A stretch of DNA of 64,000 bases from a virus, in the IMG/VR virus record IMGVR_UViG_3300008952_001422, positions 1 to 64,000 of that record, one strand, 5' to 3'. This document shows positions 45,679 through 62,673 of the stretch, piece by piece. A program made the position numbers and the translations under genes. Numbering within the stretch: the stretch's first letter is position 1; the number at the start of each line of letters is the position of its first letter. Under the pieces are notes generated by a model, which was not told the DNA's origin, did not search any database, and saw nothing but the letters and a program-made list of their open reading frames with translations.

Positions 45679-45987
45679 ATGAATATGACAAAGAAAACAA
45701 CAAATTGGATTTGGTTAGCACCAGAATATTTCAGCAGATGGAGACTATTTCCTAGAGCATTCATCTCTATGTACATCTATTTGTTATATGATGTAACGCA
45801 TTGGTTCATGTTGTTGCCCGAGCCAAACTCACAACAAGCAGGATTAGTATCAGTTTTAGTAGGTTCAGGCGCGGCATGGTTTGGATTATATGTAAATTCA
45901 AATTCTACTAAGTATGAAACACTTGAAGCGACCAGTACAACTGTAAAAATGGAAGATAAAAGAGATAAAAAGAAAAAAGATGAATAA
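45679..45987 (+). CDS. Holin candidate
   Basis: 102 residues: a short aromatic N-terminus (WIWLAPEYFSRWRLFPRAF), two predicted membrane helices (about 29-48 and 56-73, with a short PEPNSQQAG turn) and a long hydrophilic, lysine-rich tail (MEDKRDKKKKDE). This is the layout of class II holins, and I recall similar genes annotated as holins in marine myophages. Late promoter. ATG 45679 and ATG 45685 are both possible. Confidence 0.65.
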   Translation: MNMTKKTTNWIWLAPEYFSRWRLFPRAFISMYIYLLYDVTHWFMLLPEPNSQQAGLVSVLVGSGAAWFGLYVNSNSTKYETLEATSTTVKMEDKRDKKKKDE

Positions 45988-46465
45988 AAGTAACTTCAAA
46001 TATCATATTAGACTGAAAATGGCTAGCGAACTAGAGAAATCGGATATTAGCGGTATCATTACCGTTCTTAAAAAAGCAATAGTGAACATATTTCAACCAC
46101 TAGAAGATGGAACAGCAGTGATATATCACATGGGTGATGAGGCGATGAACTCACATATCTACGATTTTAGACTAAATCGTGGAGTTACAGAAGCAGAAGC
46201 AGAAGTTATTTTAGGTCTAATCACAGATTGGACTGATAAAGATTTTATTATGGAGATAACAACCAGCGAAAATTATGAAGAATTTGGTGAATTTGATGAT
46301 GAAATAGACTTAACTTCAATGAAACATAACAGGTGGATGGCAGACAAAATCGACAAAGGATGGAGATATGGTCTAAAATACAACAAAGAAGACAAAGTAG
46401 ACCCAAGATTACAGCCATATCAACAATTAACAAATAAGTTGAAAAATACTGACAAAACCACTTGA
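45980..46465 (+). CDS. RyR-domain protein
   Basis: 161 residues. The C-terminal part (about 115-158) reads MKHNRWMADKIDKGWRYG ... DKVDPRLQPYQQLTNK, which fits the RyR repeat (H-N-x-W-x-x-x-K-x-x-x-G-W-x-Y-G ... K-x-H-P-x-L-x-P-Y-x-x-L). RyR repeats occur in ryanodine receptors and in some bacterial and phage proteins, sometimes near nucleotide-signalling defence systems. The N-terminal 110 residues are unrecognised. It overlaps the holin-candidate gene by eight bases, and its stop lies in the next promoter's -35. Confidence 0.78.
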   Translation: MNKSNFKYHIRLKMASELEKSDISGIITVLKKAIVNIFQPLEDGTAVIYHMGDEAMNSHIYDFRLNRGVTEAEAEVILGLITDWTDKDFIMEITTSENYEEFGEFDDEIDLTSMKHNRWMADKIDKGWRYGLKYNKEDKVDPRLQPYQQLTNKLKNTDKTT

Positions 46466-46490
46466 CTTATGGGTAGGAACATTGTATCAT
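46462..46490 (+). promoter_or_regulatory. Sigma70-type promoter with TATCAT
   Basis: TTGACT (46462-46467), 17-base spacer, TATCAT (46485-46490), before the HscB / IscA / ACP cluster. Confidence 0.75.
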
Positions 46491-46512
46491 ATAAGAACAA
46501 ATAGGTAAAATT

Positions 46513-47049
46513 ATGTCAGGAACAAAACGTTTATATAATCTAGAAGAAAAGAATTACTTCAAATTCTTTGGTGTGGAGGAGAAGCAAGGAACTAGTATCC
46601 GAAGCCTTTCTACGCATTATAAGAAGATTTTAAACATATTAAAAGATGACAATTCATTTATTGGTAGAGACCATAAAGAATTTGCTCATAGAGCCTTTAA
46701 TACGTTAGTAGACCCAATTCTAAGAGCAAGATACATCTTGGAAACTAATGGACATGAATGGGACTTTCGTGATGGTACAACGGCAGAAGATTTAAGTTTT
46801 ATTTCTGAATTAAGAATACAACTTGGTAGAGCAAATCAAAATTATGAACTTGAGAATTTCATTTTTGAATTGAAAGGACATACTACGTTTATCATAGAAC
46901 AAATTGAAGAAAGTATAGACACTTATAAGAATTATAAAACAGCAATTGGCTTAATTAACAGATTTTATGAGATATCTCATCTACATGAAGAGGCATCAAA
47001 TAAAAAACACGAGGTAGAAGAAGGAATACATCACGGTGTGTTTGACTAA
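46513..47049 (+). CDS. HscB-like Fe-S co-chaperone, HPD motif lost
   Basis: 178 residues. NYFKFFGVEEKQGTSIRSLSTHYKKILNILKDDNSF follows the start of HscB, and RAFNTLVDPILRARYILETNGHEW is the diagnostic HscB segment (L-x-D-P-x-x-R-A-x-Y-L-L-x-x-x-G). The C-terminal three-helix part that binds IscU follows. The J-domain HPD is replaced by KDDN, so stimulation of HscA seems lost while scaffold binding could remain. First gene of the Fe-S cluster. Confidence 0.75.
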   Translation: MSGTKRLYNLEEKNYFKFFGVEEKQGTSIRSLSTHYKKILNILKDDNSFIGRDHKEFAHRAFNTLVDPILRARYILETNGHEWDFRDGTTAEDLSFISELRIQLGRANQNYELENFIFELKGHTTFIIEQIEESIDTYKNYKTAIGLINRFYEISHLHEEASNKKHEVEEGIHHGVFD

Positions 47050-47064
47050 TAAAAGAGAGGAAAT

Positions 47065-47385
47065 ATGATTTTTACAGAGAATGCGGCTGAACGAGTCAAA
47101 GAAATCATTACAGAAGATAAAGAAGATGTAAAAGCACTAAGAGTGTTTGTTCAAGGTGGCGGTTGTCATGGTTTTAGTTATGGATTTGGATTTGAAAATG
47201 ATATAGCAGGCGATGATACAGTCATTGAAACAAATAATGTAAAATTAGTAGTAGATAGTATGAGTATTATGTATCTAGCAGAAGCAACAATAGACTTTGT
47301 TCGCAGTCTTGAAGGCGAACGTTTCACAATAGATAACCCATCCTCAAGAACATCTTGTGGTTGTGGTTCAAGTTTTTCAATGTAA
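47065..47385 (+). CDS. A-type Fe-S carrier (IscA/ErpA-like)
   Basis: 106 residues with the three conserved cysteines: C34 in VQGGGCHGFSYGFGFE and C98, C100 in RTSCGCGSSF. Such proteins carry Fe-S clusters or iron to client enzymes. The sequence fits ErpA/IscA, with histidine instead of serine after the first cysteine. AAAGAGAGGAAAT precedes ATG. Marine T4-like phages often carry such a gene; here it is between HscB and ACP. Confidence 0.93.
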   Translation: MIFTENAAERVKEIITEDKEDVKALRVFVQGGGCHGFSYGFGFENDIAGDDTVIETNNVKLVVDSMSIMYLAEATIDFVRSLEGERFTIDNPSSRTSCGCGSSFSM

Positions 47386-47399
47386 AAGGAAATAATATA

Positions 47400-47636
47400 A
47401 TGTCAATAGCAGAAAATGTATTCGAGGTAGTATCAAGACAATTAAAATTTGAACTTAGTGACTTATCATTAGAAACTGATTTAAGAAAAGATTTAAATGC
47501 TGATAGCATTGATTCCGTTGAAGTAATCTTTGAACTAGAAGATTTATATAACATCACAATTGAAGATGAGGTTGCAGAAGAATTACAAACAATTGGTTCT
47601 ATTGTAGATGTTATCACCGAACTAACAAGCAAATAA
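47400..47636 (+). CDS. acpP: Acyl carrier protein
   Basis: 78 residues, acidic four-helix ACP. The attachment serine is S36 in LNADSIDSVEVIF, with I in place of the usual L after it; NITIEDEVAEELQTIGSIVDVI gives helices III and IV. Holo-ACP would be made by the phage AcpS (9197). In bacteria ACP mostly serves fatty-acid synthesis, and ACP also co-purifies with the cysteine desulfurase; the HscB and IscA neighbours make an Fe-S link attractive. AAAAGGAAATAAT before ATG 47400; the frame upstream of it is just IscA overlap. Confidence 0.92.
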   Translation: MSIAENVFEVVSRQLKFELSDLSLETDLRKDLNADSIDSVEVIFELEDLYNITIEDEVAEELQTIGSIVDVITELTSK

Positions 47637-47817: not shown

Positions 47818-48657
47818 ATGAACAAATTATTAAAAACAGCCATTGTGAGTACAGCATTGCTAACTGTACCTTATATCGCATTGGCGGATGAAACTGTAGC
47901 AGAAACATCAAATGTTTCCGTTACTGGTACATATGAAGGTACTGCGTCACACGATTTTGATGACCTTACTTATACCCAAAGTTTAGACCTTGTTATTGTC
48001 GGAACTTCTCCGGGTAATGGTAGTGTCACAGTTAAAGTTGATGAAACTGCAACTGTTGGTGACTTATACCTCGATACTGAAATACTTAATTTTGATGTTC
48101 GTCTTGGTAAGGTTGACAGCATAACTGGAATTGAAGTAGGAACAACTATCGCAGGTTTCACAGTATCGGCTCATCAAGCGTCTGGCGCCAATGGTGCAAC
48201 GACAATTGATGCTAGTACTGTAATGGGACCTCTTAACCTTTCAGGTGAAGATATTTTAGACGATGACCGCTTACTAAGTGCAGGAATGGATATTGCTGGT
48301 ATTGGTGTCGGTGGTTCATATCAAAACACAACGACAGGTACAAACACCATTCTTGATGCTGGTTTAGGCATACAAGGTTTTGACGTAGATGTCGCACATG
48401 CATCCATTGGTGATGCAAGTGTTACTAAAACTGGTGATAGCAAACATGCGTTACTAGGTACTATGACTAGTGCTACAAATGGCACAAATGTTAAAGGTGC
48501 TAAAGTATCATTAGGTGACCTTTCGGCTAAAGTTGTTAATTTAAATAGTAATAATACTTACACGTTATCGTTAGTTCGTGGCATTATGACATACTCTTAT
48601 GAGCATGTTTCAGGCGGCGATTCGACGGCTTCAGCAGGTATAAAACTTACGTTTTAA
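47818..48657 (+). CDS. Outer-membrane beta-barrel (porin-like) protein
   Basis: 279 residues. A cleavable signal peptide (KTAIVSTALLTVPYIALA, cut after ALA-DE) is followed by strands of alternating residues (VSVTGTYEGTA, SLDLVIVGT, SVTVKVDETATVGDLYLDTEI) and a C-terminal strand ending in ASAGIKLTF, the terminal phenylalanine required for outer-membrane barrel assembly. The size fits a porin of 12-16 strands. A phage-encoded barrel could change host permeability or block receptors against superinfection, as the PA-2 phage porin does. Strong AAGGAGA site and complex upstream regulation. Confidence 0.8.
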   Translation: MNKLLKTAIVSTALLTVPYIALADETVAETSNVSVTGTYEGTASHDFDDLTYTQSLDLVIVGTSPGNGSVTVKVDETATVGDLYLDTEILNFDVRLGKVDSITGIEVGTTIAGFTVSAHQASGANGATTIDASTVMGPLNLSGEDILDDDRLLSAGMDIAGIGVGGSYQNTTTGTNTILDAGLGIQGFDVDVAHASIGDASVTKTGDSKHALLGTMTSATNGTNVKGAKVSLGDLSAKVVNLNSNNTYTLSLVRGIMTYSYEHVSGGDSTASAGIKLTF

Positions 48658-48677: not shown

Positions 48678-48707
48678 AAAAAGCCTGTCTTAATGACGGG
48701 CTTTTTT
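48678..48707 (+). terminator. Rho-independent terminator
   Basis: AAAAAGCCTGTC (48678-48689), loop TTAAT, GACGGGCTTTTTT (48695-48707), one G-U pair. Ends the barrel-protein transcript. Confidence 0.95.
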
Positions 48708-48721
48708 GTTCTGGCCACTTT

Positions 48722-48729
48722 GATAAATA
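48722..48729 (+). promoter_or_regulatory. Late promoter (GATAAATA)
   Basis: TGATAAATAGTTCTAG, 42 bases before the first gene of the inner-membrane cassette. Confidence 0.75.
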
Positions 48730-48771
48730 GTTCTAGATAATTACATAATACAGACAGTGGGAGAGTTAACC

Positions 48772-49212
48772 ATGACTAAAACGTTTCTACAATGGTGGTT
48801 GTTTTTTGTACTCCAAATAATCATTCTAGGCGCCTCATATGTGTATAAACTACATTTATACATACTCAACAACGACCAGACTTATATCTGTTTCATTTTG
48901 ATAGGTATTTGGTTACTTACAAGTATGCGAATCGGATATAAGATGTACAAACATATTCGAACATCTAATGAAAAATTCTGGTTTATTGCAGAAAGTTGTA
49001 TGGCGATTGGTATGATGGGTACAGTTCTTGGTTTCATTCTTATGCTTGGCAGTAGCAACTTAGGTTCTATTGACCCATCAGATATAGAAGGTATGAAAAC
49101 CGTAATAGGACATTTAGCAAGTGGTATGTCCACGGCTCTATTGACTACCCTCACTGGTCTAATAGTTTCAGTTTCTTTACGCACTCAATTAATGATTGAG
49201 GAAGGTGAGTAA
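48772..49212 (+). CDS. MotA/TolQ/ExbB-type proton-channel protein
   Basis: 146 residues with three membrane helices. The third region (IAESCMAIGMMGTVLGFILMLGS ... GMSTALLTTLTGLIVSV) matches the MotA/TolQ/ExbB core (G-L-x-G-T-V-x-G-x-x-x-x-F and M-x-x-A-L-x-T-T-x-x-G-L). Such proteins form a ring around a TolR/ExbD/MotB partner and convert proton flow to mechanical work. ATG 48772 follows GGGAGAG; the upstream ATG at 48757 lacks one. The next gene, which overlaps by one base, is the probable partner. Confidence 0.8.
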   Translation: MTKTFLQWWLFFVLQIIILGASYVYKLHLYILNNDQTYICFILIGIWLLTSMRIGYKMYKHIRTSNEKFWFIAESCMAIGMMGTVLGFILMLGSSNLGSIDPSDIEGMKTVIGHLASGMSTALLTTLTGLIVSVSLRTQLMIEEGE

Positions 49213-49871
49213 TGTCTACACGATATGGGTCGAACCTATCGTTTAATGATGTATTGTTCAATGCACTATTAGGGTTTGTAGTTTTATTTGTATTAGCACT
49301 TCTGTTAATTAATCCAATAACAAAGAAATCAGATATCCCATCAAAAGCAGAAATCATGCTCACTTTAGAGTGGGATAGCGAAGTTGCTGACGATATAGAT
49401 ATATGGGTATTAGGTCCAGTTATGGGCGCACCTATTAGTTTCCAAAACAAACATAGTGGATATATGCACCTAGACAGAGATGACTTAGGAAGGTCATCAG
49501 ATGTTATGATGATAGATGGTGAGAAAATAATTATTAAAATAAATCGTGAAGTTGTAACCATGCGTGGTATAGCGGCAGGTGATTATTACATCAATATTCA
49601 CGTATATCATAAAAATTCAACAACTGGTCCAACTAAATATACAGTAACACTACTAGATGTTAATCCATATAAAGAAGTTTACGTCATGCAAGGTGAATTA
49701 CACAGTCGTGGCGATATTGTTAGACTTCCAGGATTTACATTGAATGAGGAAGGAGAAATTACTGATATCTGGACAAGTGATAAGATAATAGTTGGAGCAA
49801 GAGATACAAGTAGTGCTATAACGCACTATTCAAATGAACAAGGCATGGTGAATCCAGCCGACCAAGAGTAA
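49212..49871 (+). CDS. Membrane-anchored partner with beta-sandwich-like domain
   Basis: 219 residues. One helix near the N-terminus (FNALLGFVVLFVLALLLINP) preceded by SFNDVLFNALL resembles the TolR/ExbD single-pass anchor. The periplasmic part (WDSEVADDIDIWVLGPVMG ... GYMHLDRDDLG ... GDYYINIHVYHKN) looks like a DUF2135-type domain (D-I-D-x-x-V, G-x-L-D-x-D, G-x-Y-x-I-x-V). An acidic residue in the membrane helix, the proton carrier in ExbD, is not evident, but D13 lies at its start. Probably works with the preceding channel. Confidence 0.65.
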   Translation: MSTRYGSNLSFNDVLFNALLGFVVLFVLALLLINPITKKSDIPSKAEIMLTLEWDSEVADDIDIWVLGPVMGAPISFQNKHSGYMHLDRDDLGRSSDVMMIDGEKIIIKINREVVTMRGIAAGDYYINIHVYHKNSTTGPTKYTVTLLDVNPYKEVYVMQGELHSRGDIVRLPGFTLNEEGEITDIWTSDKIIVGARDTSSAITHYSNEQGMVNPADQE

Positions 49872-49886
49872 TAGAGGAGAATATAG

Positions 49887-50663
49887 ATGTTTTGGAATGA
49901 GATAACAGTTGATACTATGATTATGGTCTACGTAGTTGGACTATTCGCATTAATTATAGTATGTTTATATGCTCTAATTCAAAGTAAAGCAAACAAACTT
50001 TACACATTCATTATAATTCCATTAGCATTGATTATGGCAAGTATGACTTGGCAAGGTATCAAACTATTACAAGGTATGCCAGTTTATGGATTACCTATGA
50101 ATGAAAAAATTGAAGTACTATATGTCGAAGATAATAAGCCTTGGATATTTGTATTGTTAAGAGAGGAACATGGACCTGTTCTTTATAAAATAGATTGGAC
50201 AGAAGCAAACAAAAAGAAAATGCAAGAGTTGAAACGTTTAATTGGTGGAAGTTTTGCCCAAGGTAAATTTAAAAAAGAAGGCAATAAAGGTGAAACAACA
50301 GATTCATTTATATTTACACCAATGGAAAATATGACAGAACCTGAGAGTAAAGACCCAGAGGAAAATAGTGGTGTAACATTTTCACATCAGTCACCTACTG
50401 CTACTTATCCGGCTGACCGACCACAATTAGGCGGCTCAGTAGGCGGTTCAGGAGTTAGTTACGTACCCACAGAAGAAAATAACGATGATGATTTTATGAG
50501 AATAATTGAAGAAAGACAAGATATTAGAGAGTCGATAGAAGACGGAGTATCATTTACAAGAAATCCAGAAATAGATAATCAAGGATGGTCTACATTACTT
50601 TTATTCACAGAACAAGAAGTTAGAGAACCATTCATAGGTCCATTAAACGAGGGAGAAGAATAA
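49887..50663 (+). CDS. Membrane protein of the cassette (258 aa)
   Basis: Two N-terminal membrane helices (about 10-28 and 38-60), then a soluble domain of mixed strands (KIEVLYVEDNKPWIFVLLREEHG) and a long disordered, acidic, glycine-serine-rich tail. Not recognised. AGAGGAGAATATAG precedes ATG. It overlaps the next gene by one base. Confidence 0.7.
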   Translation: MFWNEITVDTMIMVYVVGLFALIIVCLYALIQSKANKLYTFIIIPLALIMASMTWQGIKLLQGMPVYGLPMNEKIEVLYVEDNKPWIFVLLREEHGPVLYKIDWTEANKKKMQELKRLIGGSFAQGKFKKEGNKGETTDSFIFTPMENMTEPESKDPEENSGVTFSHQSPTATYPADRPQLGGSVGGSGVSYVPTEENNDDDFMRIIEERQDIRESIEDGVSFTRNPEIDNQGWSTLLLFTEQEVREPFIGPLNEGEE

Positions 50664-50962
50664 TGTTATCAGAAAGTGTAGGAGCAGTTTTAATGATAGG
50701 ACATTTTATTGTATCAATTTTTAATGTACAACTTGGTGCGCCAGTTATCTATACAATGCCATTTGCAACTATGGAGCAATGCCAATTCTATGGTGAACAA
50801 TTGCCAAAAGACATGCAGATAGATATTGAGTGGAAGCATAGTACAAGATTTGAATGTTTCACAATTGCACAATTTCAAGAACTTCAACGACAACAGTTGC
50901 AACCTAAACAAGGCACGGCTCCAGAAAGTGCTACTAAACCAGAAGGCCCAATGAACCCATAA
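50663..50962 (+). CDS. Small secreted or membrane-tethered protein (99 aa)
   Basis: N-terminal hydrophobic segment (VGAVLMIGHFIVSIFNVQLG) that could be a signal or anchor, then a domain with two cysteines (EQCQFYGEQLPKD ... FECFTIAQFQELQRQQ) and a disordered proline-rich end. The pair of cysteines could form a disulfide in the periplasm. No family recognised. Confidence 0.65.
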   Translation: MLSESVGAVLMIGHFIVSIFNVQLGAPVIYTMPFATMEQCQFYGEQLPKDMQIDIEWKHSTRFECFTIAQFQELQRQQLQPKQGTAPESATKPEGPMNP

Positions 50963-50974
50963 GGGTAAAATAAG

Positions 50975-51823
50975 ATGAAAAAGATATTCACTTTTATAAA
51001 AGAACTATTACTTATAAGATTATTGATTAAACTTATAACAAATCCTATATTATTAGTATGTATAGTTCTTGCCGTTGCTGTAAGTAAAGACCAAGTAGTT
51101 AAATGGTATGATGATTACATGATACTATACGAAGAAGCAAACAATAAAGTCGAAGAAGAAGAAAATAGTCAAGGATTAATTTTTACGAAGATAGATGACA
51201 AGTTATATACATTAATGGGCACAGTAGAAGAAGGTGATTGTGAAAAGATTGCACCGGATATGCCTCCAGCATTTACTGTAATTTTAGAAAGTCCAGGTGG
51301 TAACTTAAAAGATGGTTCTTGTTTAGCGGCTCACATAAAACTTCGTGACGTAGTTACAGTAGTCAGAGATAGCATAGTTTTGAATGAACTAGGCGAAGTC
51401 ATTTATAAACCAGGCTCAAATCTTGACATTGATGAAAACACACCAGATTATATGAGAGGAAAATCAATATGTGCCTCAGCATGTGGTCTAATGTTCTTAG
51501 CAGGAGATAAACGATACTTGATGGGTGAAGTTTATTTCGGAATACATGGTCCAGGTACTCCTCCTGGTAGTATGAATGGGGCAAGTCCAGCGGCTATTGA
51601 AAGTAGTGCATTTAGAACTGCATCATCATTGATGAAACTACTTAAGTCTTTAGGAGTCGATGATGAAGATTTACGACTATTGTTCATTCAAATTCCAAAC
51701 GCAACAATGTATTGGCTACATCCTCGAGATTTTGAAGTAAGACCAGCATTGATTACTATTGCAACAGATTACAGAGATTTCTTTGGAACTACAGGTAGTG
51801 ATTTAGAAGGCGGACTTCGCTAA
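50975..51823 (+). CDS. Membrane-anchored ClpP-like serine protease
   Basis: 282 residues with an N-terminal membrane helix (about 18-36). The protease domain shows VILESPGGNLKDGSCLAAHIK (ESPGG at 105-109), the nucleophile S168 in SICASACGLMFLAG, and H191 in VYFGIHGPG, the order of ClpP/crotonase-fold proteases. CASAC with paired cysteines fits the periplasmic ClpP-like family of Gram-negatives rather than cytosolic ClpP or SppA. It may cut envelope proteins during late infection. AAGGGTAAAATAAG lies before ATG. Confidence 0.8.
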   Translation: MKKIFTFIKELLLIRLLIKLITNPILLVCIVLAVAVSKDQVVKWYDDYMILYEEANNKVEEEENSQGLIFTKIDDKLYTLMGTVEEGDCEKIAPDMPPAFTVILESPGGNLKDGSCLAAHIKLRDVVTVVRDSIVLNELGEVIYKPGSNLDIDENTPDYMRGKSICASACGLMFLAGDKRYLMGEVYFGIHGPGTPPGSMNGASPAAIESSAFRTASSLMKLLKSLGVDDEDLRLLFIQIPNATMYWLHPRDFEVRPALITIATDYRDFFGTTGSDLEGGLR

Positions 51824-51850
51824 AAGTAATCTAAATTAAACTCTAATTTA

Positions 51851-51858
51851 ACTAAATA
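51851..51858 (+). promoter_or_regulatory. Weak late promoter candidate (ACTAAATA)
   Basis: AACTAAATAGATG matches the late box at six of eight positions, 52 bases before the SbmA-like gene. It may give this gene extra late transcription. Confidence 0.4.
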
Positions 51859-51910
51859 GATGTACGAAAGGTTAAATTCGTATAGATTAATTAGTAATTA
51901 GAGGTGACAT

Positions 51911-52957
51911 ATGTTAAAATCATTTTTTCTAAGTAGGGAATACTTCGTATATGCATGGCTAATGCTGGCATTTCTCTTAAGCATGATTTGGTACAATGTA
52001 GAAATATTAGTATTCTACAACTTCTGGAACAAAGAAATCTATGATGTAATTCAATCACTACAAGAAGAAAGATTCTGGGAATTATTCCTGGGGTGGGATG
52101 TTGGTAGATTTTTGAATTTTGTGACCTTAACCGAGGGGACACAACCCTCATTCGTTGAAATCTTAGTCCTATACATTCCAATAGCAGTTTATTCCACTTG
52201 GCAGACACAAAGATACTGTTTTATGTGGCGACAAGCAAATACCAAACACTATATGACACGTTGGGAAGGTTCAACAGCAAAGATTGAAGGTGGCTCACAG
52301 CGTATACAAGAAGACTTAATGATATTTGGTAAGACGCTCCAAGGATTATTTACTGGATTCTTTAGTGCGATACTTATCTTATTTGCATTCCTTCCTATTT
52401 TATGGAATCTATCAGAGAGTTTACCTGTTTGGAATGGTATGATTATTCCTGGATTCTTAGTATGGATTGCATTATCTGTATCAATTGGTGGTACTTTAAT
52501 ATCTCTTTTACTTGGTTGGAAACTACCCGGTCTTGAATATAGAAATCAGGTAGTAGAAGCCAAAATGAGAAGGCAACTAGTTTTCTCTGAAGATAATTTT
52601 AAGGACAGAGCCACTGAAGTTCTATTTCCTATGTTCTATTCTGTACGTAGAAACTACTATAGACTGTTTAACTGGTATATGGGATTTGGTATATGGCAAA
52701 CAGCATTTGGATTATGTGTAGGTAACTTAGCACTAGTTGTTTTAGCACCTGCATACTTTGACCAACTCATCACACTTGGAGTCTTATTCCAAGTTCTAAA
52801 CGCATTCGGACGAGTAGAAAGTTCAATGGGTTACTTTATAGACCGTTGGACAACGATTGTTGATTTCTTATCAGTCATTAGACGTTTGAGAGAATTCAAC
52901 AAAGCACTTGATGACGCCGAAGATGTTACTTTTGATGACTCTGGCAAAAAAGTCTAG
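51911..52957 (+). CDS. SbmA/BacA-family peptide transporter
   Basis: 348 residues, multi-helix inner-membrane protein with the SbmA/BacA pattern throughout: FYNFWNKEIYDVIQS, IEGGSQRIQEDLMIFGKTL, FLPILWNLSESLPVWN, LPGLEYRNQVVEAKMRRQLVF, SVRRNYYRLFNWYMGF, NAFGRVESSMGYFIDRWTTIVDF and IRRLREF all have counterparts in E. coli SbmA. SbmA/BacA imports peptides (microcins B17 and J25, proline-rich peptides) using the proton gradient and has no ATPase domain. The phage form lacks about 60 N-terminal residues. It seems complete otherwise. Role unknown. Confidence 0.9.
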   Translation: MLKSFFLSREYFVYAWLMLAFLLSMIWYNVEILVFYNFWNKEIYDVIQSLQEERFWELFLGWDVGRFLNFVTLTEGTQPSFVEILVLYIPIAVYSTWQTQRYCFMWRQANTKHYMTRWEGSTAKIEGGSQRIQEDLMIFGKTLQGLFTGFFSAILILFAFLPILWNLSESLPVWNGMIIPGFLVWIALSVSIGGTLISLLLGWKLPGLEYRNQVVEAKMRRQLVFSEDNFKDRATEVLFPMFYSVRRNYYRLFNWYMGFGIWQTAFGLCVGNLALVVLAPAYFDQLITLGVLFQVLNAFGRVESSMGYFIDRWTTIVDFLSVIRRLREFNKALDDAEDVTFDDSGKKV

Positions 52958-53220
52958 TGAAAGACCAAGTTAAATTGGTAACAAATTATATATTACCTTT
53001 CATTTTCGGTGCAGGACTTATGTGGATTATTCAACAAAATCATATAAATGATTTACATCAAGAAATGGAATTTCAAAAATATAAACATGCTCAACAAGAG
53101 ATGTATCAAAAAATCAATCAGATAGAAGAAGACCTATATCGTAGACTTGCTGATGTTAATAGAAAACTAGGCAAGTTGGAAGTACGCAGTCGAATGATTA
53201 CTGGTGATGGTCATGACTGA
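52957..53220 (+). CDS. Membrane-anchored coiled-coil protein (87 aa)
   Basis: GTG start on the last base of the SbmA-like stop region. One N-terminal helix (YILPFIFGAGLMWIIQQ) followed by a coiled coil (HQEMEFQKYKHAQQEMYQKINQIEEDLYRRLADVNRKLGKLE). Similar small TM plus coiled-coil proteins occur at 57438 and 57781. Function unknown; it closes the membrane cassette. Confidence 0.7.
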   Translation: MKDQVKLVTNYILPFIFGAGLMWIIQQNHINDLHQEMEFQKYKHAQQEMYQKINQIEEDLYRRLADVNRKLGKLEVRSRMITGDGHD

Positions 53221-53379
53221 AATCCTGCCGTCTTAGATAGTAAGATGGAAGAATACAAAATGATAGTTGATAACTGGTTACGATAAGATAAACTACTAAT
53301 AAAACTTAACTACACACTATATATAGTACGGTTTTCTCTTAAATAATACTAGAGATAGAGGTTTTTAGGAGGTATGGGT

Positions 53380-53604
53380 ATGAAATTCTTATACGTTGAT
53401 GTTGATAATCGTAAGGTTGTTGGCTTATTTAGAAATAGCAATGAAGAAATTATAAAACTCAATATGAAAGAGTTACAGATATTAGTTCAGAAAGAACAAT
53501 ATGTGCTTAATTCTAGTATATTATCAGAGTTAAAAGAGGCTCTTAAGGCTATGGGACAGTATCGAAAAGCAAATCGTCCTTGGTACGAAAGGCTTTTCTG
53601 GTAA
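53380..53604 (+). CDS. Hypothetical protein (74 aa)
   Basis: Small strand-then-helix protein (KFLYVDVDNRKVVGLFRNSNEE ... ILSELKEALKAMGQYRK) ending in WYERLFW. ATG 53380 is seven bases after AGGAGG (53367-53372); ATG 53374 would be too close. It lies alone between a weak upstream region and a strong terminator. The 150 bases before it hold no other gene, only a 12-base palindrome at 53316-53327. Confidence 0.65.
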   Translation: MKFLYVDVDNRKVVGLFRNSNEEIIKLNMKELQILVQKEQYVLNSSILSELKEALKAMGQYRKANRPWYERLFW

Positions 53605-53623: not shown

Positions 53624-53651
53624 AATCCCGGCTCATGCTGGGATTTTTTTT
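53624..53651 (+). terminator. Rho-independent terminator
   Basis: AATCCCGGC (53624-53632), loop TCAT, GCTGGGATT followed by TTTTTT, one G-U pair. Confidence 0.95.
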
Positions 53652-53670
53652 GCTTCCCATCCATGAAAAT

Positions 53671-53678
53671 GATAAATA
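53671..53678 (+). promoter_or_regulatory. Late promoter (GATAAATA)
   Basis: ATGATAAATACAATAAAG, 33 bases before the long virion gene. Confidence 0.78.
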
Positions 53679-53711: not shown

Positions 53712-56700
53712 ATGGATTTATCAGAACTACTAGAAGATAGCAATAAAGACTTGGTTATTATATATCCAGGACGTTTTCACCCATTCCATATAGGACATGG
53801 TAAAGTATATCAATACTTAAAGATAAACTATCCGAACGCCCAGGTGTTTATTTCAACTTCAGACAATACTGATGGAGATAGGTCACCTTTTACTTTTGAA
53901 GAAAAGAAAAAGATGATGATACTGGCTGGTGTTGATTCTGGTGCTATTGTTCAGTGCAAATCTCCATATCAGTCCGTAGAGATTACGGAAAGATTTGATG
54001 AAAACAAGACAGTTGTTGTCTTTGCTGTATCTGAAAAAGATATGGAAGAAGAACCAAGATTTGATTTTTCAAAGGGCATTAGTTTTAAGAAAAACGGTGA
54101 ACCAGCGTATCTACAACAATGGAGGGGTTTAGATTCTTCTGAAACTTTTAGCAAACATGGTTACTTAGCAACAACACCTACATATGGATTTAAAGTACGA
54201 GGTGTAGAAATAAACAGTGCATCGCAAATTCGAAATATGATTGCGACAAGTGATGACACAGAACTTAATCAAATTTTACAAGATTTATATAATATTACTG
54301 ATGTTCCACAGGATATAATAGAGATATTTAAGAGAAAGATTGGAAACAAGGAAACAATGAATGAAAACTGGAGTGAATGTTCACTTTCCGAGTTTTTAAT
54401 TGAAATCGAACACGAGGAAAAGAAAATGAAAAAGGGCATACTAAAAACAATAACTGAAGGAAAGGTTTTAGATGTTGTTTTAAAACCAATAACCGAAGGA
54501 AAGAAAGACTTACACGAAGTTGTTTTAGATGTAGATTATTCTAGAAATCCTGATGCATTAGTTAAAGCAATTAACACTATGGGTAAAAGACTTAATCTTA
54601 CACTTATGAATGCACCTTCTGGAGTAGAAGATTTAAAGACAAAAGGCGAAGCAAGATTACAAGGCGGTGTAAAAGATATAACTGCATTTGTAGAGTATTT
54701 GTATAAAAAAGGTATAATGCCATATTATAATATAGTAAAAGAGGGTAAAAGCCCACATAAAAAGGGAACCAAAAAGTATAATGCCCACATGGCAGCCATA
54801 CATGCCGAGTCTAATGAAAGTGAATTCACTAGAAAAGTCCAAGAAATAACAGAAAAAAAGATTAGTATTTTTGAAAGTCTTGCGGCAGACATAAAAGATT
54901 ATGTTGATGACCACAAAAAACACTTTGATGCCTATCCACAAGATGTAGAAATAGAAGATAAAATTTATGACTGGGATGAATACTGGGCAATATTAGATAA
55001 AGTTTATCCAGATGATTACGGCAATCAATATGCACAAGAAGGTGTTATGGGAACTATAGGACAAGGAATAGATGATTTGGCGGTAGGTGCTGGCAAGTTA
55101 GCCTGGAAAGGTGCCAAGAAAGCGGCTCCACACGTTAAAGCAGGAGCCAAGAAAGGTGCTAGTGCAGTTGGAAAAGGACTCAAAAAATTGAGTAAAATAG
55201 GAAGCAAAAATGTATCATCTAAATTTGATGGCACAGGTCATGTTAGTTCTACTTTCAGATATAATGAAGATTCTTCCGACTCTGTATTTTCTATTAGAAA
55301 ATTTAAAAATGCTAAAGACCCATCTAAAGATGGACTAGAAATTACTAAAACTGGTGGCATGGGTGGCACAGTTATTATAAAAAATCAAAGAGAACTAAAA
55401 GATTTATTAGTGGCACTTAAAAGCAATGTTGATAATCTTAAAGAAAATTATGCAAATGAACAACATGAACAACTAGAATATATTCATCACGTGTTACAAG
55501 AATGTGGTGCTGGAAATGTAGACAACGCAATGGTTGACCAAGCAATAGAATTTGTTGAAGATATTAGAGAACAACATTTTAATGCTGACGGTTCTACAAA
55601 ATCAGAGAGTATCAAAGAAGGTCTAGATAACGATGACACACGTAATATTGCTATTCGTTGTGTTGATGAAATGGTGTCTCAAGGACTTATTCCTAATGAT
55701 ATGGACACAGACAATCAAACTGAATTTGAAATTCAAGACATTATTCATGACCATATAAACAAAGCATTACAAGTACGAGAATCTCAAGGTTACACAGATA
55801 CAGGTAACATCGCAGGCTACTTAGATACGATTGATGAGTATGTAGAAATGTTATTTAAAAGTTCTAAAGATAAAAAAGAAACTGAAATAGCATACAGAAT
55901 TCAAAATGCTGTTGACGATATTAGAACTAGAGAACTTGGATTAAAGCCAAGTTTAATCAGAGCAAAGTACAACAAAGAAATAAAAGAAGAAATTGATTAT
56001 GATAATCTTAATTCTGATGACATTCATGGTACAAATATAAAGGATTATCCTGAATATTTTGATGTTAAAGAAGTTGATGATGACCTTAATGTTTGTGACA
56101 GATGTGGCGATATTCAACGTTGGTATGATGAGATGTATTGGAAAGGTGAAGAAGATATGGAAACAAATGAAATCCTTGGCGATGACAATGAGGCTGTTTG
56201 TGACCGATGTTTTGGTGAACTTGCAAGAGAACATCATGGTAGAAATAAAAAAGCCAGTGAGTCATATGAACCTAAAATGGGTTGGGAAAAGCCATCGGGA
56301 GATGTACCAAAAGACCATGAGTATGGACCTGGAAGTGAAGATAGACCTAAGGGTAAACGAGGTTATACGTCATCAAGAAATGCTAGAACATCACACTTAA
56401 AATCAATTAAAAAGTGGGCAAATAAAAAACGTAGACAAATGGATAAAGATGCTAAAGATGGAGTAACAGATATGGGAAAAATGACTTCTGATGAAAGAGC
56501 AAAGAGGTCATGGGCCATGATAGCAAGTAAAGACTATGATAATAAATCAATTATTAAAGACGGAGTAAATCAAGACCAAAGTCCAGAATCAATAGAACAG
56601 ATGCAAGAAATCTATAAGTATAATGAAGATAGAAATCATCATTCAGGAAATATACTTATGTTAGCACATGCATTTGGCACTAGACCTGAGATTAAAGCAA

Positions 56701-57434
56701 TTGAAGGACTTATGAAGATAATCAAAAGACAAGGACATGTAACTCCAGAACAAAACGATTTAATGTATAACGCAATACATAAGAAATACTATCAGGAATT
56801 ATTCCCACAAGCCCAAGAAGGTAATGAATTCTCAGGTGAATTAGCAAAAGCAAAAATTGATGGTAAGAAGTCATTTAAGGTTGATGGTAAAACTTATAAA
56901 GTTAAAGAAGCACTAACAAAACTTATAGACAATCAGAAATTTGTTGAAGCAGGCATTGTAAACTATTCTGATGCAAAGGGTAAACCTAAGTATAAGGAAG
57001 GTCAAAAGGCTGCCAAAAACGGTGAGCCATATGACAGCAATCCATATGATGGTGCTGAAAAACTTCATTGGTCAAAAGGTCACAATGACTGGAGACAAGA
57101 AAATCGCAGAAAACAAGGTAAACCAAATTATGGTGCGAGAGGACAATTCGAAGACATAGAATCTGACATTGATGAAGATGGTGTTTCAGCAGAAGACCTT
57201 GTAGATATTATTACACATCGTATTAAGATGAATAAAGAATTGATGTTGTCGTTATTAGGTGATGAAGGTCCAGGTCCATTAATGAGAGCAATTGAAGATG
57301 TAGCAGAGTTTCATAGTGGCACAACTGAAGTGGGTTCAAGTGATGTATCAATAATGGTTAAGGAAGTTATTAAATCAATGTTTCCGCTTGATTATCGTAA
57401 ATTTGATTCTGCGCCATATGGTAAGGATTCCTAA
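53712..57434 (+). CDS. Giant virion protein with N-terminal nucleotidyltransferase domain (1240 aa)
   Basis: Residues 12-200 form an HxGH nucleotidyltransferase of the NMNAT/cytidylyltransferase class: IIYPGRFHPFHIGHGKVYQYL, ISTSDNTDGDRSPFTFEEKKKMM and GVEINSASQIRNM (an ISSTxxR-type signature). The rest is a long, charged, low-complexity virion-type protein with a glycine-alanine-lysine stretch (about 440-500) and two CxxC pairs (C795/C798, C830/C833) that may bind zinc. Near 1036 a GNEFSGELAKAKIDGKKSFKV module recalls marine phage virion proteins. The enzyme may be packaged and injected; active-site integrity looks good. Confidence 0.8.
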   Translation: MDLSELLEDSNKDLVIIYPGRFHPFHIGHGKVYQYLKINYPNAQVFISTSDNTDGDRSPFTFEEKKKMMILAGVDSGAIVQCKSPYQSVEITERFDENKTVVVFAVSEKDMEEEPRFDFSKGISFKKNGEPAYLQQWRGLDSSETFSKHGYLATTPTYGFKVRGVEINSASQIRNMIATSDDTELNQILQDLYNITDVPQDIIEIFKRKIGNKETMNENWSECSLSEFLIEIEHEEKKMKKGILKTITEGKVLDVVLKPITEGKKDLHEVVLDVDYSRNPDALVKAINTMGKRLNLTLMNAPSGVEDLKTKGEARLQGGVKDITAFVEYLYKKGIMPYYNIVKEGKSPHKKGTKKYNAHMAAIHAESNESEFTRKVQEITEKKISIFESLAADIKDYVDDHKKHFDAYPQDVEIEDKIYDWDEYWAILDKVYPDDYGNQYAQEGVMGTIGQGIDDLAVGAGKLAWKGAKKAAPHVKAGAKKGASAVGKGLKKLSKIGSKNVSSKFDGTGHVSSTFRYNEDSSDSVFSIRKFKNAKDPSKDGLEITKTGGMGGTVIIKNQRELKDLLVALKSNVDNLKENYANEQHEQLEYIHHVLQECGAGNVDNAMVDQAIEFVEDIREQHFNADGSTKSESIKEGLDNDDTRNIAIRCVDEMVSQGLIPNDMDTDNQTEFEIQDIIHDHINKALQVRESQGYTDTGNIAGYLDTIDEYVEMLFKSSKDKKETEIAYRIQNAVDDIRTRELGLKPSLIRAKYNKEIKEEIDYDNLNSDDIHGTNIKDYPEYFDVKEVDDDLNVCDRCGDIQRWYDEMYWKGEEDMETNEILGDDNEAVCDRCFGELAREHHGRNKKASESYEPKMGWEKPSGDVPKDHEYGPGSEDRPKGKRGYTSSRNARTSHLKSIKKWANKKRRQMDKDAKDGVTDMGKMTSDERAKRSWAMIASKDYDNKSIIKDGVNQDQSPESIEQMQEIYKYNEDRNHHSGNILMLAHAFGTRPEIKAIEGLMKIIKRQGHVTPEQNDLMYNAIHKKYYQELFPQAQEGNEFSGELAKAKIDGKKSFKVDGKTYKVKEALTKLIDNQKFVEAGIVNYSDAKGKPKYKEGQKAAKNGEPYDSNPYDGAEKLHWSKGHNDWRQENRRKQGKPNYGARGQFEDIESDIDEDGVSAEDLVDIITHRIKMNKELMLSLLGDEGPGPLMRAIEDVAEFHSGTTEVGSSDVSIMVKEVIKSMFPLDYRKFDSAPYGKDS

Positions 57435-61422: not shown

Positions 61423-62673
61423 GTGTATAACAAAGACACAATGTGTTATAAAACTTGGAATGATATTATCATATCATTACCAAAGAAAACAGTTAGTTGG
61501 TGTTGTAAGACAAACTTAACTGCTCAACAAACAAAAGAAACCACATTTAATTTAGATATCTTAAACACACAAGGTATAGATTTTCTTTTCAATCATCCAA
61601 TTCTTCAAAAGAGAAAAAACAACTTAGCAACTGGTGTAAGATGTCCAGATTGCCATGTATGTTGGGAATCAGAAGATAGGTCTGGACAAAGTCATAGAAC
61701 ATTATATACTAAAACTTACGAATCTAAGGAGTCCTTTACTGGTGAATTTGATTATGATACTCCTGCTACCTTTATTGAACTTGAATTAACAAACAAGTGT
61801 AATCTAGCATGTGTATATTGTGGACCACAACTTAGTTCAAGATGGCAAAAAGAATTAAAACAACGACATCCTGATACTGAAGATGAGATATTTCATAAAG
61901 TAATGGAGTTATTTACAGAATATTGTAATACTAAACTCACAAATGAACCATATATCAATATCAGTCTATTAGGTGGCGAGCCTTTCTTTACTGACCACAT
62001 GTACATATTCTTAGAATATCTTTCAAAATTCCATGTAAAATCAGAACAAGAAGTAACAGTTACAATCACAACTGGTATGGCTTTTCCTGAAAAGAAATTT
62101 ACGAAATTTATTGAGTTGATTGAACGTACTCCTAACATAATATACATTATGCAGTTATCTGGAGAAGCAATTGACGAGAGAGCAGAACTAATTCGGTGGG
62201 GGATGGACTTTAAGACGTGGAACAATAACTTAGATATGTTCTTAACAGAGTCAGCAAGACTGAAGAATCTAGTTATAGGATTTGGTTGCGCCCATAATGC
62301 CTTATCTCTGCCGTATTTCAAAGACTTTCTTGTATACATTAATAAAAAACTGGCAAAACACGAATACAAATCTCTTGTATGGTTTCTAATCAACTATATA
62401 GAAGAGCCACAACACTTATCCATATCAATGCTAAATAGTCACCATGCTGATGCTGTAACAGAGCAGATAGAGTACATGGAGAACGAAATGACTAATCTTT
62501 ATAAGAAAGATGAGTATACTACTATGCTAAAGTCACTTAGAAATCAAATTTTGAATGCGAATATCACTCCAGAGATGAAGCAGAATGCTTCAAAAGAGTT
62601 TGAAATGTTAGAGAATAGAAGAGGAATCTCCTACAAGTCTGAATTTCCTCATTTTGATGAGATAATTAAATAA
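61423..62673 (+). CDS. Twitch-domain radical SAM protein
   Basis: 416 residues. The [4Fe-4S] motif is C126-x3-C130-x2-C133 (NKCNLACVYC) with the SAM-binding ISLLGGEPFF further on. An N-terminal cluster of cysteines (C27, C28 and C74-x2-C77-x2-C80, RCPDCHVCW) is typical of twitch/SPASM radical SAM proteins with an extra cluster. These enzymes make peptide or protein radicals, for example in maturation or modification. Expected users of the phage Fe-S proteins and ferredoxin reductase. GTG 61423 with AAAAGG, or ATG 61441, are possible starts. Confidence 0.85.
   Translation: MYNKDTMCYKTWNDIIISLPKKTVSWCCKTNLTAQQTKETTFNLDILNTQGIDFLFNHPILQKRKNNLATGVRCPDCHVCWESEDRSGQSHRTLYTKTYESKESFTGEFDYDTPATFIELELTNKCNLACVYCGPQLSSRWQKELKQRHPDTEDEIFHKVMELFTEYCNTKLTNEPYINISLLGGEPFFTDHMYIFLEYLSKFHVKSEQEVTVTITTGMAFPEKKFTKFIELIERTPNIIYIMQLSGEAIDERAELIRWGMDFKTWNNNLDMFLTESARLKNLVIGFGCAHNALSLPYFKDFLVYINKKLAKHEYKSLVWFLINYIEEPQHLSISMLNSHHADAVTEQIEYMENEMTNLYKKDEYTTMLKSLRNQILNANITPEMKQNASKEFEMLENRRGISYKSEFPHFDEIIK

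What the first reader, a model, noticed from the sequence alone, without database searches (positions are those of the whole stretch)
48722..53220. Late inner-membrane cassette: proton channel, partner, protease and peptide transporter
Seven adjacent same-strand genes behind a late promoter encode an ExbB/MotA-type channel, a TolR-like anchored protein with a DUF2135-like domain, two unknown envelope proteins, a ClpP-like membrane protease, an SbmA/BacA transporter and a membrane coiled coil. A proton-driven channel with a periplasmic arm recalls Tol-Exb-Mot motors and the ZorAB pair of Zorya defence. I know of no described phage system of this make-up. Possible roles: superinfection exclusion, defence against peptides, or preparing the envelope for lysis. 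This is my best candidate for an undescribed system.
Basis: partly seen in the sequence, partly recalled or inferred. Interest (0 to 1): 0.82.

Follow-up and report, generated by a model that had tools for sequence, protein, structure and literature searches.

The report
Phage-encoded proton motor with peptide importer
This marine virus, and hundreds of other viral contigs, carry a three-gene proton-driven motor of the kind bacteria use to power flagella and energise their outer membrane, often next to a periplasm-facing protease and a peptide importer, and no paper we found describes it.

Summary
In detail: seven same-strand genes follow a conserved late-promoter box (GATAAATA, 48722) and end at a terminator (53624), which adds one gene, H. 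The first six are conserved and under purifying selection; the seventh (G) has no homologue.

The core is a strict triad A-B-C, found in order in 103 of 106 viral B loci and 77 of 80 bacterial ones. A is a MotA/TolQ/ExbB-family channel; both pore threonines are conserved (T89 155/159, T131 159/159). B is a single-helix partner; its membrane aspartate is invariant (162/162). C is a two-helix protein and a new obligate companion. The triad is widespread: 360 viral relatives, unrelated rhizobiophages including the classic phage 16-3, and about 10% of sampled Gammaproteobacteria.

E has a ClpP fold; F is SbmA/BacA. Two SbmA lineages (35% identical) independently adjoin ABC. In an unbiased set of 27 related viral records, ABC and SbmA occur in exactly the same five. 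In 16-3-like phages a secreted trypsin-like protease precedes ABC.

Zorya membership fails (no ZorB, ZorC or ZorD; no ZorA tail). Best reading: a late, proton-powered envelope-processing module, a new variant of the 5:2 motor family. The motor identity is well supported; its task is inferred.

The parts
48680..48709 (+). intrinsic terminator of the upstream outer-membrane-protein gene, which isolates the cassette
   Evidence: sequence; stem GCCYGT..ACGGGC plus T-run conserved upstream of A in all six group-I loci
48722..48729 (+). late-promoter box GATAAATA
   Evidence: conserved at the same distance before A in six of six group-I loci; 11 copies on + versus 1 on - in the window, mostly 30-60 nt before gene starts
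48772..49212 (+). A: MotA/TolQ/ExbB-type channel subunit, 146 aa, three TM segments (in-frame GTG at 48757 also open)
   Evidence: PF01618 8.5e-8; pore Thr T89 155/159 and T131 159/159; numbering from GTG 48757
49212..49871 (+). B: single-TM partner with TM Asp13 and an all-beta periplasmic domain, 219 aa
   Evidence: D13 invariant in 162/162 distinct homologues; model pLDDT 81.8, helix 8-33 then beta domain
49887..50663 (+). C: third member of the triad, two TM segments plus periplasmic domain, 258 aa
   Evidence: next to A-B in 103 of 106 viral and 77-78 of 80 bacterial loci; alignment A6
50663..50962 (+). D: small membrane-anchored protein with two conserved Cys, 99 aa
   Evidence: directly before E-F in 36 of the 49 SbmA-scan loci; alignment of cluster 5
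50975..51823 (+). E: membrane-anchored ClpP-fold serine hydrolase, probably periplasmic, 282 aa
   Evidence: Foldseek to ClpP E 4e-6; Ser168 41/41, His191 41/41; directly before F in 48 of 49 loci
51911..52957 (+). F: SbmA/BacA-family peptide importer, 348 aa
   Evidence: PF05992 1.5e-73; 49 viral relatives
52957..53220 (+). G: N-terminal TM plus coiled coil, 87 aa; lineage-specific
   Evidence: no homologue in the fetched loci; other TM+coiled-coil ORFs sit after F in L002, L005, L007
53374..53604 (+). H: 76-aa conserved protein inside the same transcription unit
   Evidence: 72-82% identical in group-I loci; lies before the terminator
53624..53655 (+). intrinsic terminator that ends the transcription unit
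   Evidence: 9-bp stem then T-run

Best explanation
A, B and C are a phage-encoded, proton-driven motor of the 5:2 type. A forms the inner-membrane ring. B is the axle, carrying the proton-binding aspartate at the start of its helix and a beta-sandwich arm in the periplasm. C is an obligate two-helix companion that probably couples or regulates the motor. It is a phage-borne branch of an undescribed system that is also chromosomal in many Gamma- and Alphaproteobacteria. The phage makes it late, in one transcription unit with a membrane-anchored ClpP-fold protease (E) facing the periplasm and an SbmA-type importer (F). The most likely working: the motor spends proton-motive force to push or pull on envelope components while the protease cuts envelope or periplasmic proteins and the importer returns the peptides to the cytoplasm, so that the envelope is reworked and cleared late in infection. 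Shown: gene content, conservation, key residues, ClpP fold, promoter and terminator, genetic linkage to SbmA and in many lineages to a serine protease. Inferred: 5:2 assembly, proton flow, periplasmic placement of E, peptide flow, and purpose.
For: A is MotA_ExbB by Pfam with weak profile matches to solved MotA, ZorA and TolQ. T89 (155/159) and T131 (159/159) sit where ExbB has its essential Thr148 and Thr181, and B has an invariant TM Asp (162/162) like ExbD Asp25 (PMC12905483; residue match judged by motif). The triad is near-strict in viruses and bacteria. E has the ClpP fold with invariant Ser and His. E and F are adjacent in 48 of 49 loci. SbmA occurs in 11 of 20 large ABC-bearing records and, in an unbiased 27-record set, in exactly the five that have ABC (Fisher p = 1.2e-5), yet in only 4 of 50,697 isolate phage records. 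Two SbmA lineages, 35% identical, each adjoin ABC. Proteases of different families stand beside ABC: E, cytosolic-type ClpP, and a secreted Trypsin_2 in 16-3-like phages. Late box and terminators.
Against: ABC also stands without any protease or SbmA neighbour in many loci (Pootjesviridae; 36 of 56 dereplicated viral loci have no protease within about three genes), so these partners are not obligatory. Chromosomal ABC has no E or SbmA beside it. The unbiased set is phylogenetically clustered and made of fragments; only 4 of 11 group-III records with D-E-F showed ABC. The ClpP found near ABC in 16 loci looks cytosolic. E lacks an evident third catalytic residue. No complex was modelled and no activity measured.
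Confidence: 0.45

Rival explanations
1. Lysis helper: the late motor and protease weaken the peptidoglycan-outer membrane connection or set lysis time, with G as a spanin-like coiled coil.
For: Late promoter. In 16-3-like rhizobiophages the protease-ABC block lies 2-4 kb downstream of endolysin genes. Chromosomal ABC sits beside an L,D-transpeptidase gene. G has TM plus coiled-coil architecture.
Against: In Pootjesviridae ABC sits between topoisomerase genes and the late sigma gene, away from lysis genes. The small membrane proteins near the cassette (clusters 12 and 39) have no holin match. G is not conserved. An SbmA importer has no obvious lysis role.
Confidence: 0.2
2. Superinfection exclusion or anti-phage defence: the motor senses or blocks incoming phages, in the manner of ZorAB.
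For: A has weak matches to ZorA profiles (PADLOC 3.3e-6; NCBIfam 1.7e-4). In phage 16-3 the block lies 3-4 kb from the immX immunity genes.
Against: No ZorB-type (OmpA) domain, and no ZorC, D or E seen beside the triads examined. Phage A is 146 aa and lacks the long ZorA tail. Late expression is late for exclusion.
Confidence: 0.13
3. Peptide salvage alone: E and F feed amino acids to the phage, and ABC is an unrelated neighbour.
For: E-F adjacency in 48 of 49 loci. In some lineages E-F lies 30-48 kb from ABC. SbmA/BacA proteins import peptides (established knowledge).
Against: ABC and SbmA co-occur even when apart, and two SbmA lineages adjoin ABC independently.
Confidence: 0.15
4. The genes are unrelated accessory genes gathered by chance in one late operon.
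For: G and part of D-E-F placement vary between lineages.
Against: A-B-C order kept in 103 of 106 viral and 77 of 80 bacterial loci; purifying selection on all six genes.
Confidence: 0.05

Closest known systems
Tol (TolQR-TolA) and Ton (ExbBD-TonB) motors
   Same: Channel family, three-TM A subunit with pore threonines, single-TM B subunit with a membrane Asp, small inner-membrane third partner
   Different: B carries a large beta domain instead of the small TolR/ExbD domain; C has two TM segments, no long periplasmic arm and no sequence match to TolA/TonB; phage-borne with E and F
Zorya ZorAB
   Same: MotA/ExbB-family channel with a single-TM partner
   Different: No ZorB OmpA domain, no long cytoplasmic ZorA tail, no ZorC/D/E effector genes; found inside lytic and temperate phages
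MotAB and other 5:2 motors (GldLM, AglRS)
   Same: Conserved TM Asp and MotA-type channel motif
   Different: No OmpA-like peptidoglycan-binding domain in B, no flagellar or gliding genes nearby
SbmA/BacA peptide importers
   Same: F covers the whole Pfam profile
   Different: Phage-encoded, directly behind E in its lineage, and genetically tied to ABC
ClpP / SppA-type serine peptidases
   Same: ClpP fold, invariant Ser and His
   Different: N-terminal membrane anchor, no detectable sequence match, third catalytic residue not evident

Membership tests
5:2 proton motors (MotA/TolQ/ExbB with MotB/TolR/ExbD) | A subunit belongs to the MotA/TolQ/ExbB family | tested here: met
   PF01618 8.5e-8 for the phage and 2.3e-11 for the chromosomal A, both above cut-off
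5:2 proton motors (MotA/TolQ/ExbB with MotB/TolR/ExbD) | Pore threonines in the last two TM helices of A | tested here: met
   T89 155/159 and T131 159/159; equivalence to ExbB Thr148/Thr181 judged by motif
5:2 proton motors (MotA/TolQ/ExbB with MotB/TolR/ExbD) | B has one TM helix with an essential Asp | tested here: met
   Asp13 162/162; one hydrophobic segment; helix 8-33 in the model
5:2 proton motors (MotA/TolQ/ExbB with MotB/TolR/ExbD) | A5B2 stoichiometry and proton conduction | not testable with these tools
   No complex prediction or electrophysiology available
Zorya defence system | ZorB with OmpA-type peptidoglycan-binding domain | tested here: not met
   B has no accepted Pfam, NCBIfam or PADLOC match
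Zorya defence system | ZorC/ZorD/ZorE effector genes beside ZorAB | tested here: not met
   No PADLOC match to such effectors among the cassette proteins tested; none seen among recurrent neighbours
Zorya defence system | Long cytoplasmic ZorA tail | tested here: not met
   Phage A is 146 aa; ZorA profiles are 383-699 positions
Tol-Pal / Ton systems | TolA/TonB-like third component | tested here: not met
   C has two TM segments and no accepted family match
SbmA/BacA family | Full-length PF05992 match without ATPase domain | tested here: met
   1.5e-73 over profile positions 2-314 of 315; no ATPase domain in the Pfam result
ClpP-type serine peptidase | ClpP fold | tested here: met
   Foldseek E 4e-6, prob 1.00, TM-score 0.66 by target length
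ClpP-type serine peptidase | Catalytic Ser-His-Asp | tested here: inconclusive
   Ser168 and His191 invariant in 41/41; no invariant Asp in the region expected for the ClpP Asp
DUF2135 (PF09906) | Profile match of the B periplasmic domain | tested here: not met
   No match at E <= 1 in the window's genome; the profile rings in control genomes
Phage i-spanin (G) | Conserved i-spanin with partner o-spanin gene | tested here: inconclusive
   TM plus coiled coil only; no family match above chance and no partner seen

The most novel reading that the evidence does not exclude
A-B-C is a proton-powered machine for periplasmic proteolysis. The periplasm has no ATP, so the 5:2 motor would do there what AAA+ unfoldases do for ClpP in the cytoplasm: unfold or pull envelope proteins toward a protease (E in marine phages, a trypsin-like protease in rhizobiophages), with SbmA carrying the peptides home.
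Probability: 0.1. Interest if true: 0.95.

Novelty: new variant of a known kind. Interest (0 to 1): 0.77.

Why it matters
Rotary 5:2 motors are known from flagella, gliding, Tol/Ton transport and Zorya defence; the papers read here do not mention phage-encoded ones. A conserved three-gene motor found in hundreds of viral contigs, including a genetically tractable classic (phage 16-3), and in about a tenth of sampled Gammaproteobacteria would add a branch with a new obligate partner and a new periplasmic domain. Its repeated pairing with SbmA importers, and in many lineages with serine proteases, points to a use of proton-motive force late in infection that has no current description, and deletion of p038/p040/p042 in phage 16-3 makes it directly testable.

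Tried and rejected
DNA-level search in isolate phages gave no match. The A1 profile could not be used on genome contigs for lack of conserved stretches; A5 was used instead. DUF2135 for B: no match. PDB sequence searches for E (none) and B (only noise, ribosomal L23). Fold search for B gave an uncharacterised protein (2qng, SAV2460) and Bacteroides DUF4425 domains, so no function follows. Holin identity for the small membrane proteins of clusters 12 and 39: no Pfam match, and only an uncharacterised PHROG for cluster 12. Zorya membership rejected. Chance grouping rejected. T4-type TATAAATA is not enriched; the working box is GATAAATA. Gp23 search in the own genome was uninformative, since its control rang nowhere. 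Literature searches found no description; one eLife paper notes a lone ExbB gene in Lentisphaerae phages, a different case. The paper on the 16-3 relative AP-16-3 does not mention p036, p040, trypsin or holin.
Full report
WHAT IS THERE. The window is part of a 127-kb virus record. Its replication and Clp ATPase genes resemble those of T4-like and jumbo phages. Pfam recognises A as MotA_ExbB (8.5e-8) and F as SbmA_BacA (1.5e-73); B, C, D, E and G have no accepted family, and in PHROGs only F has a significant match, to a family of unknown function. A probably starts at ATG 48772, because its relatives start there.

TRANSCRIPTION UNIT. An intrinsic terminator (48680-48709) closes the upstream outer-membrane-protein gene, and GATAAATA follows at 48722. 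Both are present at the same place before A in L002, L003, L005, L006 and L007. GATAAATA occurs 11 times on the coding strand and once on the other, mostly 30-60 nt before a gene start; a first-order Markov null gave a mean of 5.2, with 11 or more in 4 of 200 simulations, so the position and strand bias carry more weight than the count. The next + strand terminator is at 53624-53645, so the unit includes H (53374-53604).

CONSERVATION. A scan with F found 49 viral loci. Three arrangements appear: A-B-C-D-E-F (the window, L002-L007, L033, L041), E-F-A-B-C (L008-L019) and D-E-F with ABC elsewhere (most of L020 onward). In three such records ABC lies 30-48 kb away. E directly precedes F in 48 of 49 loci; in the last (L046) the contig starts inside F. 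G is found nowhere else, but unrelated TM-plus-coiled-coil ORFs follow F in L002, L005 and L007. dN is far below dS for A-F.

THE TRIAD. A scan with a B profile gave 360 viral relatives. After iterative profile search A, B and C occur in order in 103 of 106 loci, with inserted genes in a few. B has an aspartate at position 13, the start of its only membrane helix, in 162 of 162 distinct sequences. A keeps T131 in 159/159 and T89 in 155/159. These are the expected places of ExbD Asp25 and ExbB Thr148/Thr181, which a review lists as essential (PMC12905483); the equivalence is by motif, not by structural alignment. The B model (pLDDT 82) is a helix at 8-33 followed by an all-beta domain. The best PDB fold match is an uncharacterised protein (2qng, E 3.5e-4).

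ISOLATED PHAGES. tblastn with B finds only rhizobial phages among 50,697 isolate records. Triads occur in Pootjesviridae between topoisomerase genes and the late sigma gene, in RHph_I1_18 and RHph_N3_13, and in phage 16-3 and its kin. In phage 16-3, p038, p040 and p042 match A, B and C profiles, and p036, just upstream (one 44-aa ORF between), is a signal-peptide-bearing Trypsin_2 protease. A protease-A-B-C block also stands in RHph_X2_25, RHph_TM3_3_14B and NV1.1.1, with homing-endonuclease genes inserted between members.

BACTERIAL CHROMOSOMES. A genome scan gave 275 relatives, and A-B-C sits together in 77 of 80 loci examined; a few of these (for example L135, L137, L141) look like phage contigs binned with bacteria. 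In a class-wide sample around a Salinisphaera genome, 39 of 369 genomes carry B. In many Gammaproteobacteria the operon also has a YkuD L,D-transpeptidase and a DUF302 gene upstream and a VWA-FHA membrane protein downstream. In marine Alphaproteobacteria it lies beside the suf operon. Most chromosomal A proteins carry an extra cytoplasmic stretch of about 90 residues that phages lack. A quick A+B+C tree groups the long-A bacterial rows together within the viral diversity; rhizobiophages sit apart on long branches, and the root is unknown.

LINK TO SbmA AND PROTEASES. SbmA is present in 4 of 50,697 isolate phage records, two of which are short unannotated fragments, but in 11 of 20 large ABC-bearing records. 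To avoid selecting on either gene I fetched relatives by the clamp-loader gene. Of 27 records of at least 50 kb, five have ABC and the same five have SbmA (Fisher p = 1.2e-5). The five are related and include near-copies, so the true strength is lower. Two SbmA lineages, 35% identical to each other, each adjoin ABC (A-B-C-F without E in L068, L069, L076-L078), which points to repeated association. A protease (E or a ClpP) lies within about three genes of ABC in 20 of 56 dereplicated viral loci. The E model has the ClpP fold with Ser168 and His191 invariant; no conserved third catalytic residue was found in the expected region. Its charge pattern suggests an N-in anchor with the catalytic domain in the periplasm (inference).

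MECHANISM. The anatomy supports a proton-driven motor acting on the periplasm late in infection. Because SbmA repeatedly accompanies it, and a serine protease does in many lineages, I propose that it powers or assists envelope processing, with proteolysis in the periplasm and peptide return through F. This step is inferred. Against a fixed partnership, many phage triads lack one or both partners, and none of the clearly chromosomal ones examined has E or SbmA beside it.

COMPARISON AND NOVELTY. The motor fits the MotA/TolQ/ExbB superfamily by family, pore residues and TM aspartate. It fails the Zorya test and has no TolA/TonB-like component. The papers read on 5:2 motors do not mention phage-encoded members, and no search hit described the cluster; the library holds only open-licence papers. 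I rate it a new variant of a known kind: confidence in the motor identity is high (about 0.85), in the stated task moderate to low (about 0.3).

Noticed in passing
L184:5100-9642 and many Gammaproteobacterial loci among L142-L213: Chromosomal ABC operon with a YkuD L,D-transpeptidase and a DUF302 protein upstream and a VWA-FHA membrane protein downstream, often near tilS-accA-dnaE; no description found in the papers searched.
   Followed up: partly
L136, L138, L140, L144: Marine Alphaproteobacterial chromosomes carry the triad with a short, phage-sized A next to the suf operon.
   Followed up: partly
window 45679-47636: Upstream late genes: a small membrane protein (phrog_10198), a RyR-domain protein, an HscB/DnaJ-like protein, an IscA/SufA-like Fe-S protein and an acyl carrier protein; several recur upstream of ABC in other phages.
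   Followed up: partly
window 47818-48657: Phage-encoded protein with signal peptide and C-terminal Phe, probably an outer-membrane beta-barrel; conserved before ABC in group I only.
   Followed up: partly
window 53712-57434: 1240-aa protein with an N-terminal cytidylyltransferase-like domain, behind its own GATAAATA box at 53671.
   Followed up: no
L216:6466-7008, L217:5159-5917, L218:5153-5890: HNH and GIY-YIG-like homing endonuclease genes inserted between members of the triad in 16-3-like rhizobiophages.
   Followed up: no
whole window: GATAAATA rather than T4's TATAAATA appears to be the common late box of this phage.
   Followed up: partly
window 61423-62673: Radical SAM protein; radical SAM genes recur near ABC in several other viral loci.
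   Followed up: no
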